This document shows positions 3,932 to 53,520 of a DNA stretch of 64,000 bases, piece by piece. Source of the stretch: Nocardia brasiliensis. GTDB lineage: Bacteria; Actinomycetota; Actinomycetes; Mycobacteriales; Mycobacteriaceae. The stretch spans positions 682,001-746,000 of the forward strand of contig NZ_CP046171.1 in assembly GCF_011801125.1 (NCBI RefSeq), in the 5' to 3' direction. Under the pieces are notes generated by a model. That model was not told the origin of the DNA. It saw only the letters and a program-made list of their open reading frames with translations, and did not search any database. The position numbers and the translations under genes were made by a program. The number at the start of each line of letters is the position of its first letter. The stretch's first letter is position 1.

Positions 3932-4891
3932 GTGCGGCGAACATCGGTTGCTGTGGCAGTGCTGACCTTGGCGCTGGGCCTGGCGGTACCCGCCTTGGTC
4001 GGCTCCACGAGAGCGGCGGCGGCGCAGATCGTGCGCATCGACCGGCTGACCCCCACCCGTTCGGCGCTGTTCATCGATTCCCCCGCGATGAGCCGCACCA
4101 TTCAGGTGCAGGTGCTGCATCCGGCCGGCGGCGGCGCCCGCCCGACCTACTACCTGCTGGACGGTCTCGATCCCGGCACGACCCAGAGCACCTGGACCAA
4201 CGCCACCGACGCCGAGCGCTTCTTCGCGGGCTCGCGGGTCAACGTAGTGCTGCCGGTCGGCGGTCAAGCCAGCTACTACACCGACTGGCAGCAGGACGAC
4301 CCCCGCTTCGGCCGCTACCGGTGGGAGACGTTCCTGACCGAGGAGCTGCCGCCGCTGATCGATACGGCGTTCCACGGCAACGGCGTCAACGCGATCGGCG
4401 GGCTCTCGATGGGCGGTAACGCGGCCTTCATCCTCGCCGCCCGCAAGCCGTGGCTGTATCGCGCGGTCGCGGGGTACAGCGCCTGCCCCGATACGGGTTT
4501 GGCGATGGGCGCTGTGATGTTCTCGATCGCCAACCGCGGCGGGAATCCGCTGAACATGTGGGGCCCGCCCGGCAGCCCGGCGTGGGCCGAACACGATCCG
4601 GCGCTGCTGGCGGAGCACCTGCGCGGCAAGACGATCTACCTCTCCTCCGGCACCGGTATCCCCGGCCCGCACGAGCTGGAGATCAAACCGCAACTCGCGG
4701 AGAACATTTTCCTCGGTGGCCCGGTCGAGGTCGGCGCGAACACCTGTGTGATCGCGTTCGAGCAACGCTTGCGCGCGTTGGGAATTCCGGCCCGGGTCGA
4801 CTACAGCCCCACCGGAACCCACTCGTGGTCGTACTGGCAGGACACCCTGCACGCGTCGTGGCCGACCATCGCACCCGCCATCGGCGCCTGA
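3932..4891 (+). CDS. Secreted antigen-85/mycoloyltransferase-like alpha/beta-hydrolase
   Basis: 319 residues from the GTG at 3932, preceded by the SD GGAGGTG at 3920-3926; an upstream in-frame TTG at 3905 is less likely. The N-terminus (VRRTSVAVAVLTLALGLAV, then AAAA) is a signal peptide. The nucleophile elbow GGLSMGGNAAF contains Ser159 and the C-terminal PTGTHSWSYWQ supplies the catalytic histidine, both as in the antigen 85/PS1 esterase family that transfers mycolic acids onto trehalose or arabinogalactan at the cell envelope. Whether this paralogue is a mycoloyltransferase or an esterase cannot be said. A second paralogue is at 19298-20383. Confidence 0.85.
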   Translation: MRRTSVAVAVLTLALGLAVPALVGSTRAAAAQIVRIDRLTPTRSALFIDSPAMSRTIQVQVLHPAGGGARPTYYLLDGLDPGTTQSTWTNATDAERFFAGSRVNVVLPVGGQASYYTDWQQDDPRFGRYRWETFLTEELPPLIDTAFHGNGVNAIGGLSMGGNAAFILAARKPWLYRAVAGYSACPDTGLAMGAVMFSIANRGGNPLNMWGPPGSPAWAEHDPALLAEHLRGKTIYLSSGTGIPGPHELEIKPQLAENIFLGGPVEVGANTCVIAFEQRLRALGIPARVDYSPTGTHSWSYWQDTLHASWPTIAPAIGA

Positions 4892-17548: not shown

Positions 17549-17631
17549 AATTAACGAGTAGGCATATTCGATTTAAAAGAAGTCCGGAGCGCGGCGACTT
17601 CGTTTAATTTGCCGACACGCCGGGTCGGATC

Positions 17632-17666
17632 GTCACGTGCCACGTGACAGTTGGCATGATCACGTG
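17632..17666. promoter_or_regulatory. Three CACGTG boxes incl. palindrome GTCACGTG-C-CACGTGAC
   Basis: CACGTG occurs at 17634, 17641 and 17661. The first two form the 17-base palindrome at 17632-17648, and all three surround a TTGGCATGAT promoter-like block (17651-17660) that recurs before other peptide copies. This is probably the control site for the first peptide gene. The binding protein is unknown. Confidence 0.5.
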
Positions 17667-17707
17667 CGCTAAGTCATCCATGGATCGACCTACAAACAGG
17701 AGGAACA

Positions 17708-17794
17708 ATGCTGCTGCCCGTGGTTGGAAGTATGGCCGGTGCCGCTATTGCCGCGCTGACCGTCATCCTCGGCATCATCATCGCGGTCATCTAG
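17708..17794 (+). CDS. Tandem hydrophobic micropeptide, copy 1 (28 aa)
   Basis: 28 residues, starting MLLPVVGSMAGAA and ending VILGIIIAVI. There is no charged residue anywhere; apart from the ends it is one membrane-spanning stretch with a GSMAG (GxxxG) packing motif and a proline at position 4. AGGAGG 5 bases upstream of ATG is an ideal ribosome-binding site. The protein is identical to copy 2 although the genes differ at eight positions, all silent third-base changes. That is direct evidence that the peptide is translated and selected. No known family recognised; it could be a membrane, envelope or toxin-like peptide. Confidence 0.88.
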   Translation: MLLPVVGSMAGAAIAALTVILGIIIAVI

Positions 17795-17823
17795 CACTCC
17801 GTTCAGACCGAGTTCGTGAAACT

Positions 17824-17839
17824 GCCTCCGGTGTGAGGC
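17824..17839 (+). other. Module stem-loop after copy 1
   Basis: GCCTC-CGGTGT-GAGGC: 5-bp stem with six-base loop, 29 bases after the copy 1 stop, followed by ACCTCGG. Confidence 0.6.
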
Positions 17840-17945
17840 GACCTCGGCTAAGTTCCTTGAAATGTCGAGGTAGTTCGACATCTGAAATCCGCAGCGGCAC
17901 TCCGTCGCTGTGTGATCACTAGCTCTACCGACAACAGGAGGAACT

Positions 17946-18032
17946 ATGCTTCTGCCCGTGGTTGGAAGTATGGCCGGTGCTGCCATTGCGGCTCTTACCG
18001 TGATCCTCGGGATCATCATCGCGGTCATCTAG
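17946..18032 (+). CDS. Tandem hydrophobic micropeptide, copy 2 (28 aa)
   Basis: Encodes exactly the same peptide as copy 1 (MLLPVVGSMAGAA...). The SD is AGGAGG in CAACAGGAGGAACT, so the upstream block has lost one base and changed one relative to the others, but the ribosome-binding core is intact. It lies 151 bases after copy 1. Eight synonymous differences from copy 1 show that this is an old duplication kept under protein-level selection, not a recent assembly or replication repeat. Confidence 0.88.
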   Translation: MLLPVVGSMAGAAIAALTVILGIIIAVI

Positions 18033-18057
18033 CTTCCACAGCTGGCTGAGCTCTCCC

Positions 18058-18075
18058 CGCCTCTTCCCCGAGGCG
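18058..18075 (+). other. Module stem-loop after copy 2
   Basis: CGCCTC-TTCCCC-GAGGCG: 6-bp stem with six-base loop, 25 bases after the copy 2 stop, followed by ATCCTCGG. Confidence 0.65.
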
Positions 18076-18109
18076 ATCCTCGGCTGATTTCCGCTACGGC
18101 CGAGATGGT

Positions 18110-18139
18110 TTGACATTCTGAAATCGAGAGTGGCATGAT
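18110..18139 (+). promoter_or_regulatory. Promoter candidate for micropeptide copy 3
   Basis: TTGACA (18110-18115), 18-base spacer, then CATGAT (18134-18139) in an extended TGG-CATGAT context. Related blocks occur at similar distances (42-47 bases before ATG) upstream of copies 1 (CATGAT) and 5 (CATCAT), and less clearly copies 2 and 4. Each module may therefore carry its own promoter. Confidence 0.5.
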
Positions 18140-18184
18140 CGCCGCTGCTCGATTAAATGGTTCAACCGACAAACAGGAGGAACA

Positions 18185-18271
18185 ATGCTTCTGCCCGGTG
18201 TTGGTAGTTTTCTGGGTGCGGCTGTCGCGGCCCTGGGTGTGATTCTGGGTATCATCGTCGCGGTCGTCTAG
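18185..18271 (+). CDS. Tandem hydrophobic micropeptide, copy 3 (28 aa)
   Basis: Second subfamily: MLLPGVGSFLGAAVAALG, then VILGIIVAVV. It keeps positions MLLP-VGS--GAA-AAL-VILGII-AV of copies 1-2, with G5, F9-L10, V14, G18 and V25. Gly at 7, 11, 18 and 22 gives two GxxxG steps (GSFLG and GVILG), a pattern associated with tight helix packing in membranes. SD AGGAGG 5 bases before ATG. A good promoter candidate (TTGACA-N18-CATGAT) lies 46 bases upstream. Protein identical to copy 5, with nine silent codon differences. Confidence 0.88.
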   Translation: MLLPGVGSFLGAAVAALGVILGIIVAVV

Positions 18272-18306
18272 TCAGCGCCTTCGGCACTGCTAGCTGAGAT
18301 CGCCAC

Positions 18307-18324
18307 CGCCTCTCGTCCGAGGCG
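18307..18324 (+). other. Module stem-loop after copy 3
   Basis: CGCCTC-TCGTCC-GAGGCG: same stem, different loop, 35 bases after the copy 3 stop, followed by CCCTCG. Confidence 0.65.
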
Positions 18325-18395
18325 CCCTCGATCCGAATTCTGTGTGATCGAGGATGTTCGACAATCAATGGATCGACCGACAAACAGGAGAAACA

Positions 18396-18482
18396 ATGCT
18401 TCTGCCCGGTGTTGGTAGTTTCTTGGGTGCTGCTGTGGCGGCCCTGGGCGTGATTCTCGGCATCATCGTCGCCGTCATCTAG
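18396..18482 (+). CDS. Tandem hydrophobic micropeptide, copy 4 (28 aa)
   Basis: Same as copy 3 except a C-terminal Ile instead of Val. Relative to copy 3 there are eight silent codon changes and this one conservative replacement. The SD is slightly weaker (AGGAGA, one mismatch). It follows copy 3 after only 124 bases, the shortest spacer, and its upstream TCGAGGATGTTCGACA block sits unusually close to the ORF. Confidence 0.87.
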   Translation: MLLPGVGSFLGAAVAALGVILGIIVAVI

Positions 18483-18569
18483 TTGGCGCCGCCCGGCTTC
18501 ATCGTGCCGGGCTTCATGAGGAATCGGACTACTTCCAGCTGGAGTCTCCGAGCCTGTTGAAATCTGCAT

Positions 18570-18587
18570 CGCCTCGACTCCGAGGCG
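18570..18587 (+). other. Module stem-loop after copy 4
   Basis: CGCCTC-GACTCC-GAGGCG, 87 bases after the copy 4 stop, followed by CCCTCGG. Stem constant and loop variable across all four copies, which favours an RNA structure. Confidence 0.65.
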
Positions 18588-18694
18588 CCCTCGGTGAACA
18601 TTCGAATCGTCGAGGTAGTTCGACAGACTGCATGCCACACAGTTGGCATCATCTCTACTTTCCGACAGTGATCGACCGACAAACAGGAGGAACA

Positions 18695-18781
18695 ATGCTT
18701 CTGCCCGGTGTTGGTAGTTTCTTGGGTGCAGCCGTGGCGGCCCTGGGCGTGATTCTGGGAATCATCGTCGCCGTCGTGTAG
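18695..18781 (+). CDS. Tandem hydrophobic micropeptide, copy 5 (28 aa)
   Basis: Last copy, identical in protein to copy 3. The spacer before it is the longest (212 bases) and contains the TCGAGGTAGTTCGACA block and an AGTTGGCATCAT promoter-like block also found before copy 1. The SD is AGGAGG. The frame is open for a further 46 codons upstream, but the shared 28-residue unit with its SD shows the real start. Instead of the module stem-loop it is followed by an 8-bp hairpin (18791-18814) and a strong intrinsic terminator. Confidence 0.88.
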   Translation: MLLPGVGSFLGAAVAALGVILGIIVAVV

Positions 18782-18827: not shown

Positions 18828-18867
18828 CGTGCCGGACGACTGCAGCGTCCGGCACGCTTCTTTTTCT
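18828..18867 (+). terminator. Intrinsic terminator of the micropeptide array
   Basis: CGTGCCGGAC and GTCCGGCACG form a perfect 10-bp GC-rich stem (18828-18837, 18847-18856) with a nine-base loop, followed directly by CTTCTTTTTCT. This is the best rho-independent terminator in the window and marks the end of the array transcript. Confidence 0.9.
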
Positions 18868-19074: not shown

Positions 19075-19131
19075 CATCGAAGCCCGCTGTGTACATCGAA
19101 GCCCGCTGTGTATATCGAAGCCCGCTGTGTC
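19075..19131. repeat. Three 19-bp tandem direct repeats
   Basis: CATCGAAGCCCGCTGTGTA is repeated three times head to tail (19075, 19094, 19113; third copy with T for the first C and a variant end). The unit length of 19 is not a codon multiple, and no convincing ORF covers it. The rest of 18868-19227 shows no gene. Confidence 0.85.
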
Positions 19132-19297: not shown

Positions 19298-20383
19298 CTA
19301 CTCCTTGACGCCCATGCCGCGTGCGAGGGTCGGCCAGGACAGCTTCAGCTCGTCCTCCCAGTAGCCCCACGAATGCGTGCCGGTCGGGTGGATGGTGAAG
19401 GTGGCCGGAATGCCAAGGGAATCCAGCTTCGTCTTCAGATTCTGGGTGCAGTGCGCGGTGGCCGCCTCGATCATTCCGCCGATGATGATCTGATTGGCCA
19501 GACCGCTCGGGCCGGGCTGTGTATGCGGCCCGTTCAGGGTGTCGTAACGGCCCGGCAGGCCATTGCCCGAGGAGATGTACAGTTCGGTGCCGCGCAGGCC
19601 CTCAGCGTTGACGTAGGGGTCATTGGCGATCCAGTCCTCGGAACCGGTGGGTCCCCACATGTTCTCGTGGTTGGCGCCGCCGTATCCGTCGACGACGAAT
19701 TTCACGAATCGCGAACCGAGCGGGTCGCTGGTCTGCGCGCATCCGCTGTATGCGGCGGCCACGTTGTAGAGGCCCGGCTTCGCGATGGGAAGTGCGAGCA
19801 CGGTGGTGGCGGAGGTCGAGATCCCCGCGATGCCGTTGACGCCATTCGTGCCGAGTGCCGCATCGATGATCGGGGGCAGTTCTTCGGTCAGGTAGGTCTT
19901 CCATTTGTTGCGCCCGAGTACCGGATCGTCCTTGATCCAGTCGGTGTAGTAACTGAACATTCCGCCGATCGGGAGGATCAGGTTCACGTCCTTGTCCGCC
20001 ATGAACGCGCGGGCATCGCTTTGCGCCTGCCACGAGGCGATGTCGATACCGCCGCCCGCGCCGCTCAGCAGATACAGGCTCGGTCGCGGTTTCGAGGTAT
20101 CGGCCGGGCGCTGGATTTCGACCGGAAAGGTCTTGTCCATCGCCGCAGAATAAACCTGGAGTCGGATATTGCGGTCGTCGATGGTCTCCGTGTCGGTTAT
20201 CCGAGAGCCGTCCGGCGCGGTAACCGAAGTGGTCACGAGTTTCGCATCGGTGGCTGGGTCGGCCGTTGCCGCCGATATACCCAGTGTGGTCATGGCGCAG
20301 GCGAGCAGTCCGGTCGCCGCGAGGGAGGCTACGGAACGTGATCTGCGGGAGTTGTGTGCTTCTGCGTTTACGCTCCAATTCAT
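19298..20383 (-). CDS. Secreted mycoloyltransferase-like esterase with altered nucleophile elbow
   Basis: 361 residues from the ATG at 20383; the open frame extends 27 codons upstream but those residues precede the signal peptide (basic NSRRSRS, then VASLAATGLLACAMTTLGI, cleavage near ATADPA). Shared with the 3932 esterase are SYYTDWxxDDPxxGRxxWxTxLTEELPPxID, NMWGPxGS, and PTGTHSWGYWE with the catalytic His. The nucleophile motif reads AGISTSATT: Ser189 is kept but the usual second Gly of GxSxG is Ser191. Acts outside the cell membrane. Probably an antigen-85-like acyltransferase or esterase; the changed elbow leaves activity uncertain. Confidence 0.85.
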   Translation of the reverse strand: MNWSVNAEAHNSRRSRSVASLAATGLLACAMTTLGISAATADPATDAKLVTTSVTAPDGSRITDTETIDDRNIRLQVYSAAMDKTFPVEIQRPADTSKPRPSLYLLSGAGGGIDIASWQAQSDARAFMADKDVNLILPIGGMFSYYTDWIKDDPVLGRNKWKTYLTEELPPIIDAALGTNGVNGIAGISTSATTVLALPIAKPGLYNVAAAYSGCAQTSDPLGSRFVKFVVDGYGGANHENMWGPTGSEDWIANDPYVNAEGLRGTELYISSGNGLPGRYDTLNGPHTQPGPSGLANQIIIGGMIEAATAHCTQNLKTKLDSLGIPATFTIHPTGTHSWGYWEDELKLSWPTLARGMGVKE

Positions 20384-20710
20384 AGGACAAGCTTTTAGCA
20401 CGCCGCTCGGATCGCACATGCGGCGACACGAACCAATGTCCGAATTACGTAGAATCATCGACAAACTGGTCAGTTGTCACAGGTGTCGTTTTCCGAAGCC
20501 GTCAAGGGGCGCAACGTTCTTCGTCGCACGGTCGGTCACCGCGTCGCCGCCGTGGAAATCCCGGGTGCAATTCGGCATGTCCGGCCGCGAATTCGTGGAC
20601 TTATCCGGGGCGGATCGGACGCACTTGGTACTTCGCCGAAGTCCTTGGGTACCATCTGCGCCGGGGTATTCAGCCCCGACATCCGATCGAGCTCTCCGAA
20701 GGGTGAATTC
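20384..20710. promoter_or_regulatory. Divergent intergenic region between esterase and hemophore-like gene
   Basis: 327 bases without a credible gene. An in-frame extension of the hemophore ORF from 20474 lacks protein character and precedes the signal peptide. The only symmetry noticed is ACTTCG-C-CGAAGT at 20630-20642. No iron-box-like 19-bp palindrome was seen. Confidence 0.5.
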
Positions 20711-21103
20711 ATGAAGATGCTCAACCCGCGTTACGCCTTCGCTTCTCTCGTCATCACCGGTATCGCCGCCGGCGCTTCGCTGTTCGGCACCGGAATTGCC
20801 ACGGCGGATATGATCAACGATCTCGCTCCGCTGCTGAGCTCGGAATGCACCTTCAAGCAGATCGACGCCGCGATTCATCAGGACGCGCCGGAGATGGCCG
20901 CGAAGCTCGACGCCTCGCCGGTGCAGAAGATGGCCCTGGAGGCGGCTTACAGCGTGCCGACCGACGTGCGCGTGGAGACGTTCCAGAAGTTCACCGAGCA
21001 GAAGAAGGACGGGGTCGAGACCCCGCTCGATTCCATGAGCCCGGACCTGGGCGACAGGATGACCAAGATCAGCACCTCCTGCAAGACGTTCCCGCAGGCG
21101 TAG
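20711..21103 (+). CDS. Hemophore-related secreted protein
   Basis: 130 residues. [32 protein letters not shown] is a signal peptide; the mature part begins [23 protein letters not shown] and ends [13 protein letters not shown], so one cysteine pair could close the helical bundle. Length, the two cysteines and the C-terminal pattern fit the mycobacterial hemophore-related family (Rv0203-like), small exported helical proteins associated with haem binding or transfer. GAAGGG upstream serves as SD. Haem ligand residues cannot be assigned by eye. Neighbour of a mycoloyltransferase-like esterase, so both act at the envelope. Confidence 0.75.
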
Positions 21104-53253: not shown

Positions 53254-53300
53254 CACCTCGCTAAATTCGTTCTTACACAAGGAAGGAGGTGGTTCGAAGA

Positions 53301-53339
53301 ATGTATGTTCATAGGACTCGTGAGGTGGCTGTCCGCTAG
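53301..53339 (+). CDS. Putative 12-codon ORF with near-perfect Shine-Dalgarno
   Basis: AAGGAGGTGGTTC (53283-53295) matches almost the entire anti-SD complement and is followed by an ATG and MYVHRTREVAVR then TAG. A second ATG at 53305 in another frame opens a longer, less protein-like ORF. The exceptional ribosome-binding site suggests a translated leader or micro-peptide. No gene follows on the same strand, so it would be a stand-alone product. Not recognised. Confidence 0.35.
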   Translation: MYVHRTREVAVR

Positions 53340-53520
53340 CGCCACCGCTGCAACGGTCTCCGTTCGCGCGAGCGCTGAGCGAATACCAGGCAGCCACCCG
53401 GCCCCCGAGCCCCCGGTCTTGTCCGATCGGGATCGCGCAGGTGTTTACACCCGCGATATGGCTCGGGGGTCGTTCCTATTTACCGGGCAGAAAGACGCCC
53501 ACACGCCACTCCGGCAAGAT

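What the first reader, a model, noticed from the sequence alone, without database searches (positions are those of the whole stretch)
17708..18781. Tandem array of five genes for a 28-residue, charge-free hydrophobic peptide
Seen: five ORFs of exactly 28 codons, each with a strong SD and a conserved upstream block. Two subfamilies (VVGSMAG and GVGSFLG) differ at seven or eight positions. Copies 1 and 2 are identical in protein despite eight synonymous changes; copies 3 and 5 are identical despite nine; copy 4 differs by one conservative change. A silent-only pattern is hard to explain without translation and selection on the peptide. No charged residues, conserved Gly-x3-Gly steps and one helix length suggest a membrane or envelope oligomer. 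Multi-copy dosage resembles Ibs/Ldr toxins or PSM-like peptides, but no family I know matches.
Basis: partly seen in the sequence, partly recalled or inferred. Interest (0 to 1): 0.95.

Follow-up and report, generated by a model that had tools for sequence, protein, structure and literature searches.

The report
Lipid-tagged mini-peptides with dedicated enzyme
A Nocardia chromosome carries five tandem genes for a 28-residue peptide without a single charged residue, next to a gene for an enzyme that is predicted to hang a mycolic acid on the peptide's one invariant serine, so the peptides would likely become lipid-anchored parts of the bacterium's outer membrane; related species carry other tiny peptides beside the same enzyme subfamily, many behind a shared promoter-like DNA element.

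Summary
In detail: five 28-codon genes, no charged residue, strong SDs, nearly silent-only differences within two subfamilies. The peptide family (28 or 32 aa, MLLPxVGSxxG..., Ser8 invariant) occurs in 16 of 148 Nocardia genomes searched and was not found in the other 30 genera sampled. The array lies 0.5 kb from a mycoloyltransferase gene whose nearest solved relative is Corynebacterium Cmt1/MytC, the enzyme that O-mycoloylates the mini-porins PorA and PorH; its catalytic triad is kept. The Nocardia Cmt1-like genes found beside such peptides form one clade: a small hydrophobic ORF lies within 1.5 kb of 18 of 22 clade members, 0 of 29 sister-clade and 1 of 52 other paralogues. Different mini-peptides (24-25, 27-29 and 54 aa) stand beside the same enzyme clade. 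Most loci share a promoter-like element, CGACACGCC-N33-35-SATGATC, which led to unseen peptide loci. Best reading: dedicated, likely O-mycoloylated mycomembrane peptides with their own transferase, working like PorA/PorH-MytC but not filed as members. Modification, export and pore function are untested. Toxin and PSM readings gained no support.

The parts
17613..17661 (+). Bipartite promoter-like element CGACACGCC-N33-CATGATC (extended -10-like TTGGCATGATC at 17651-17661), beginning 95 nt before the first peptide start
   Evidence: Same element, spacing 33-35, before 16 of 21 peptide loci of three peptide families; used prospectively. Promoter function inferred
17708..17794 (+). Peptide gene 1 (MLLPVVGSMAGAAIAALTVILGIIIAVI), SD AGGAGG 17698-17703
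17824..17839 (+). GCCTC-N6-GAGGC hairpin after copy 1; the same after copy 2 (18059-18074), copy 3 (18308-18323) and copy 4 (18571-18586)
   Evidence: sequence, alignments; role unknown
17946..18032 (+). Peptide gene 2, same protein as gene 1 with 8 silent changes
18110..18139 (+). Sigma-70-like site TTGACA-N18-CATGAT before copy 3
   Evidence: consensus match only
18185..18271 (+). Peptide gene 3 (MLLPGVGSFLGAAVAALGVILGIIVAVV)
18396..18482 (+). Peptide gene 4 (as gene 3 with V28I)
18695..18781 (+). Peptide gene 5, same protein as gene 3 with 9 silent changes
18828..18856 (+). Terminator-like stem of 11 pairs with T-run after the last copy, between the convergent peptide array and mycoloyltransferase gene
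19298..20464 (-). Cmt1/MytC-like mycoloyltransferase ORF (388 aa; probable start ATG at 20383 from the family alignment); triad S216/E333/H364 in ORF numbering
   Evidence: PF00756; Cmt1 4h18/8qhf E 1e-81 against Ag85A 2e-26; triad aligned to S189/E310/H341, invariant in 13 rows; start region read
20391..20429 (-). Conserved GTGTCG-N-TGCTAAAAGC block directly before the probable mycoloyltransferase start
   Evidence: 17 of 27 clade members, 0 of 151 other mycoloyltransferases (pattern chosen after seeing the sequences); position checked
20711..21103 (+). Small secreted 'hemophore-related' protein (TIGR04529), recurrent neighbour of the peptide arrays
   Evidence: within 2 kb of 18 of 26 peptide loci

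Best explanation
The five genes encode mini-peptides that are likely the dedicated substrates of the Cmt1/MytC-like mycoloyltransferase encoded beside them, which is predicted to esterify a mycolic acid to their one invariant serine (Ser8) and so would lodge them in the outer mycomembrane. Steps shown: the peptides are under protein-level selection; Ser8 is invariant in family I; a single clade of Cmt1-like genes accompanies them and three other mini-peptide families; loci of families I, II and V share an upstream element; the enzyme keeps the MytC catalytic triad. Steps inferred: transcription from the element; export without a Sec signal, as reported for PorA, PorH and ProtX; transfer of mycolate from trehalose monomycolate to Ser8 (Thr6 in family V); packing of the helices through their Gly/Ala positions into oligomers in the mycomembrane. 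Whether the oligomer is a channel, a structural lipopeptide or a coat is open.
For: Homology: window ORF best matches Cmt1/MytC, triad kept. Clade-specific adjacency: careful tree 100/100 for 22 rows, SH-aLRT 100 for 27 rows; small hydrophobic GS-containing ORF within 1.5 kb of 18 of 22 clade members vs 0 of 29 sister-clade and 1 of 52 other paralogues, Fisher 2e-15 without correction for relatedness. Of the seven clade members found through the enzyme rather than through a peptide (L116-L118, L131-L134), five have one. Of the four misses, two are contig ends where one search found a peptide piece, and one (L132) lacks the stretch that holds element and peptide in its relatives. The enzyme clade stands beside peptides of different sequence and length, and the purQ-to-M18 locus that holds family I in the window holds family V in five other genomes. 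Shared element: 16 of 21 loci, all 16 with the transferase adjacent, the 5 without it lacking the element; 7 of 7 strong sites checked (5 of them known family I loci) precede a peptide, 0 of 53 other pattern sites. Serine context: Ser with Gly/Ala and hydrophobic neighbours, as in the mapped O-mycoloylome (PMC11066868, passages). MytC alone mycoloylates PorA Ser15 in vitro (PMC11927696, passages).
Against: No direct evidence of modification, export or location. PorA Ser15 lies in a linker between helices (an AlphaFold model in PMC11927696), whereas Ser8 lies in a continuous predicted helix 3-31 (a 32-aa relative). The Cmt1-likeness is shared by a core Nocardia paralogue without peptides, so homology alone does not prove a peptide acceptor. 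Three peptide genomes (G068, G076, G138) and two second loci (L045, L115) have no transferase in the stretch fetched. L132 and L118 are clade members without a detected peptide. Family I rows were found through their peptides, which favours adjacency. Family V has only Thr as invariant hydroxyl, a minor acceptor in C. glutamicum (about one ninth of Ser). [quoted passage not shown] glutamicum (PMC5310785, section 19).
Confidence: 0.6

Rival explanations
1. The peptides are small membrane-protein partners of the transferase (activator, chaperone or anchor) rather than its mycoloylated substrates.
For: Tight adjacency with one enzyme clade; hydrophobic mini-proteins are known regulators of membrane enzymes (recalled). 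A continuous predicted helix without a loop at Ser8.
Against: Up to six tandem copies beside two transferase genes and an invariant Ser suggest a bulk substrate more than a regulator; the peptides differ strongly between families while the enzymes stay 60-70% identical to the window's.
Confidence: 0.15
2. The peptides form an unmodified hydrophobic envelope layer, or act in uptake together with the hemophore-related secreted protein that is often the next gene.
For: TIGR04529 gene within 2 kb of 18 of 26 peptide loci, also at L043 and L051, which lack the transferase.
Against: Families II and III have no such neighbour in the stretches fetched but keep the transferase; no Pfam match supports heme binding in the two proteins tried.
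Confidence: 0.12
3. Type I toxin array (Ibs/Ldr-like) or bacteriocin/PSM-like secreted peptides.
For: An ABC-type ATPase gene, a possible exporter, lies beyond the hemophore-related gene in eight of the related genomes (five family V, three family I).
Against: No charged residue; no antitoxin, immunity or ABC-exporter family among the window neighbours scanned, and the ATPase orthologue is not near the window's array; no match in phage or plasmid records. A conserved mycoloyltransferase partner is not expected. An antisense RNA was not tested.
Confidence: 0.08
4. Chance ORFs or DNA-level repeats without a protein product.
For: Tandem repeats alone can keep ORFs open.
Against: pN/pS 0.04-0.43 against 1.1 and 1.5 in the other frames; invariant residues in 32 rows from several species; SD and start kept.
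Confidence: 0.02

Closest known systems
PorA/PorH of Corynebacterium glutamicum with the transferase MytC (Cmt1, Cgp_0413)
   Same: Tiny signal-less proteins (45 and 57 aa) needing a Cmt1-type transferase; Ser acceptor near small and hydrophobic residues (PMC12632848, PMC11066868, PMC11927696: passages read).
   Different: No sequence relation claimed; 24-32 aa here in families I, II and V; no charged residue; tandem near-identical copies; the enzyme gene adjacent to the peptides and in a clade of its own.
PorACur (37 aa) and PorACj (40 aa) one-component cell wall channels
   Same: Very short channel-forming peptides of the mycolata (PMC5944148, passages; PMC3792995, search listing).
   Different: The family I, II and V peptides are shorter and uncharged; channel activity is untested.
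NfpA/NfpB porins of Nocardia farcinica
   Same: Envelope channel components of the same genus (described in PMC5310785, passage).
   Different: About 20 kDa and Sec-secreted there; these are about 3 kDa without a recognisable signal.
Ibs/Ldr type I toxins; phenol-soluble modulins (recalled)
   Same: Short hydrophobic peptides, multi-copy.
   Different: Toxins are paired with antisense RNA, PSMs are charged and amphipathic; here a mycoloyltransferase partner and no charge.

Membership tests
PorA/PorH mini-porins | Sequence homology to PorA or PorH | tested here: inconclusive
   No Pfam or NCBIfam match of two 28-mers above a curated cut-off, no PDB sequence match of one 28-mer; no direct comparison with PorA/PorH sequences was run
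PorA/PorH mini-porins | Amphipathic helix with charged residues | tested here: not met
   Zero D/E/K/R/H in the family I peptides listed; that PorA/PorH carry charges is recalled, PorA's amphiphilic bundle is from PMC11927696
PorA/PorH mini-porins | O-mycoloylated serine | not testable with these tools
   Ser8 invariant in the 32 rows; no chemistry available
PorA/PorH mini-porins | Channel activity in bilayers | not testable with these tools
   -
Cmt1/MytC-type mycoloyltransferases (neighbour gene) | Closest solved relative Cmt1 rather than Ag85 or PS1 | tested here: met
   278 bits against 146 (PS1) and 96 (Ag85A); peptide-free core paralogue is alike in this
Cmt1/MytC-type mycoloyltransferases (neighbour gene) | Catalytic Ser/Glu/His | tested here: met
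   S216/E333/H364
Cmt1/MytC-type mycoloyltransferases (neighbour gene) | Protein rather than sugar acceptor; MytC-specific loop | not tested
Type I toxins (Ibs/Ldr) | Antisense RNA antitoxin | not tested
   No Rfam match at the array; antisense transcription not testable here
Phenol-soluble modulins | Charged amphipathic helix and dedicated ABC exporter (recalled) | tested here: not met
   No charged residue; no ABC exporter among the window neighbours scanned, though an ABC ATPase gene is near eight related loci

The most novel reading that the evidence does not exclude
Nocardia runs a swappable lipopeptide system: one clade of protein mycoloyltransferases, each with its own set of charge-free 24-32-residue (or nearly charge-free 54-residue) peptides, many under a common promoter, which become the smallest known covalently mycoloylated building blocks, perhaps the smallest pores, of a bacterial outer membrane, and which are exchanged between species at a fixed chromosomal site.
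Probability: 0.35. Interest if true: 0.92.

Novelty: new variant of a known kind. Interest (0 to 1): 0.82.

Why it matters
Whether protein O-mycoloylation exists outside Corynebacterium, and on what, is described as open in the papers read (PMC5310785 section 19; PMC11066868 passages). A genus-level, enzyme-linked family of one-serine peptides of about 3 kDa gives candidate substrates whose intact mass would settle the question, a minimal acceptor for studying the enzyme, and a handle on how signal-less peptides reach the mycomembrane. Peptides of this size are easily missed by gene callers and standard proteomics (general knowledge).

Tried and rejected
Rejected: chance ORFs; phage or plasmid cargo (no match, though the window's own or near records may be left out there); known RNA element at the array (only Ms_IGR-5 elsewhere); Pfam Fim-adh_lectin hit of copy 1 (E 0.096, below cut-off). 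Weak or null: clustering of small residues on one helix face has p 0.02 for the 28-mers and 0.03 for family II (two sequences) but 0.15 for the 32-mers and 0.07 for family V. CGACACGCC alone is not enriched in the window. The short pattern hits 60 of 148 Nocardia and 85 of 401 family genomes; only sites ending TT[AG]G[CG]ATGATC (21 genomes, chosen after reading the list) go with peptides in the loci checked. A possible fourth mini-peptide family (MGS...AIS.LL...GS) near transferases of two other genera rests on two sequences (L166, L174) and is left open. A family V census gave 6 of 148 genomes, one of them (G037) a 16-residue match inside a 608-codon frame that I discount; family II 3 of 148; no census of family III was made.

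Dropped before counts: the first neighbourhood count (16 of 19, 0 of 28, 0 of 62) left out rows whose aligned stretch held a stop; one search replaces it with 103 rows after removing 12 remote own-genome rows and collapsing rows identical over their last 200 residues. The 2.2 Mb are redundant loci. One search left out L037/L039 (split contigs of G029/G030).

Full report
What is there. Five ORFs of 28 codons stand in tandem at 17708-18781 (+), each with AGGAGG or AGGAG before the start. The proteins carry no charged residue. Within the two subfamilies the copies differ almost only silently: 8 silent changes between copies 1 and 2, 9 between 3 and 5, and V28I in copy 4. The subfamilies differ at 6-7 positions, not 7-8. 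pN/pS is far below one in this frame (0.04 and 0.11 within subfamilies, 0.43 over 18 28-mers, 0.38 over 20 32-mers) and 1.1-1.5 in the other two forward frames of the 28-mers.

The family. In the window's own genome only this array is found. A first search of 150 genomes of the genus gave 19 with hits at E<=0.1, some of them partial. A profile of 32 peptides finds it in 16 of 148 genomes of the genus, and among 401 genomes of the family in 3, all of the window's genus, none in the other 30 genera sampled (at most 20 candidates scored per genome). Members are 28 or 32 aa, with a four-residue difference in mid-peptide; M1, L3, P4, G7, S8 and G11 are invariant in the 32 rows. AlphaFold2 gives a 32-aa member as one helix, residues 3-31, mean pLDDT 94.

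The partner. 0.5 kb downstream and convergent lies an esterase-fold gene (19298-20464, -) whose best solved relatives are Cmt1 (4h18, 8qhf; 278 bits), well ahead of PS1 (146) and Ag85A (96). S189/E310/H341 of Cmt1 align with S216/E333/H364, invariant in 13 relatives. Cmt1 = MytC is reported as exclusively responsible for protein O-mycoloylation in C. glutamicum (PMC11066868, passages) and sufficient to mycoloylate PorA Ser15 in vitro (PMC11927696, passages). PorA (45 aa), PorH (57 aa) and ProtX lack a Sec signal (PMC12632848, passages).

The link. In distant relatives with other flanks the array still has a Cmt1-like gene beside it. The window's genome has 17 Ag85/Cmt-like matches, so adjacency could have been to any of them. 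In the careful tree the Nocardia genes that stand by such peptides form one clade, support 100/100, sister to a core paralogue seen in many Nocardia. A small hydrophobic ORF (at most one charge, GRAVY>=1.2, SD, 'GS') lies within 1.5 kb of 18 of 22 clade members, of 0 of 29 core members and of 1 of 52 others; Fisher p 2e-15, not corrected for relatedness, and the family I rows were found through their peptides. The seven clade members found through the enzyme instead brought different peptides at five of them: family II, 24-25 aa, MLL(L)GLGSxLGPxIGALLG (G141, G142, G091), and family III, 54 aa with several GS and one Asp (G092, G136). A scan of 80 named transferase loci added family V, 27-29 aa, MLLSVTxPLGxG..., in tandem (N. 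altamirensis, N. tenerifensis). In the fuller tree family V enzymes join the same clade, 27 rows, SH-aLRT 100.

The element. CGACACGCC-N33-35-[CG]ATGATC begins 89-112 nt before the first peptide start in 16 of 21 loci of families I, II and V; the five without it (L043, L045, L049, L051, L115) are those without the transferase in the fetched stretch. At that point all 15 distinct matches in the held 2.2 Mb (redundant) preceded a peptide. A genus scan with the pattern gave sites in 60 of 148 genomes. The 21 genomes whose site ends TT[AG]G[CG]ATGATC include three not seen before, G066, G080 and G127; all three carry family V arrays, and with G009 and G129 they hold them at the window's own locus, between purQ-PBP-MarR and the M18 peptidase gene. 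Among the loci fetched with the pattern, 7 of 7 such sites (two of them new) and 0 of 53 other sites precede a peptide. Family III has a different upstream region. The transferase genes of the clade have their own conserved block, GTGTCG-N-TGCTAAAAGC, in 17 of 27 against 0 of 151 others (pattern fitted after inspection); GTGTCG is the reverse complement of CGACAC in the peptide element, which hints at co-regulation and no more.

Census. Families I, II and V occur in 16, 3 and 5 of 148 genomes (a sixth family V hit, G037, is discounted), without overlap. In N. anaemiae (L132/G013) the stretch with element and peptide is missing beside a clade member.

Other neighbours. A hemophore-related secreted protein (TIGR04529) is within 2 kb of 18 of 26 peptide loci, the transferase within 2 kb of 21 of 26. 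Family V loci add a SAM methyltransferase of Pfam LCM; since these peptides end in Leu or Ile, C-terminal methylation is a guess worth testing. An orthologous ABC-type ATPase gene (68-88% identical) lies beyond the hemophore-related gene in the five family V genomes and in three family I genomes (G103, G068, G076), not at the window's array; it could be an exporter, but its absence elsewhere speaks against a general role.

How it works, most likely. Peptides are made, exported by an unknown route, given a mycolate on Ser8 (Thr6 in family V; one or more Ser in family III) by their own transferase, and packed by Gly/Ala contacts in the mycomembrane. Selection, partner and element are shown; expression, export, chemistry, place and function are inferred. 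Against it: PorA's acceptor Ser is modelled in a linker, Ser8 is in a predicted helix; Cmt1-likeness is shared by a peptide-free paralogue; some loci have no enzyme beside them.

Known or new. Works like PorA/PorH with MytC; membership in PorA/PorH is not claimed (charge-free, no detected relation). Five literature searches listed no paper on such Nocardia peptides by title or abstract start; the library lacks most subscription journals. [quoted passage not shown]

Noticed in passing
window 53275-53478 (+): Rfam Ms_IGR-5 actinobacterial sRNA, 131.7 bits; the only Rfam match at gathering threshold in the window.
   Followed up: no
window 19075-19131: Three tandem 19-bp units (CATCGAAGCCCGCTGTGTA and a variant) between the array and the transferase gene.
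   Followed up: no
window 4022-4888 (+): A second esterase-fold (PF00756) mycoloyltransferase-like gene, about 40% identical to the array's neighbour, 12.8 kb upstream of the array.
   Followed up: partly
L319-L323 (e.g. L322:7546-8391 -): LCM-family SAM methyltransferase between transferase and family V peptides, absent from the family I loci tested; might methylate the peptides' C-terminal Leu.
   Followed up: partly
L225:8589-9605 (+) and orthologues in L214, L319-L323, L042, L043, L051: ABC-type ATPase gene beyond the hemophore-related gene at eight related peptide genomes, 68-88% identical among them, not at the window's array: a possible exporter.
   Followed up: partly
L174:5470-5562 (+), L166:12187-12300 (-): Small peptides MGS...AIS.LL...GS near transferase genes in two other genera; a possible further mini-peptide family.
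   Followed up: partly
L253 and L218 in the listing: Taxonomy labels of some record titles look wrong (a Rhodococcus MAG shown under Cyanobacteriota, N. alni under Frankiaceae), probably a name-matching slip of the tree tool.
   Followed up: no
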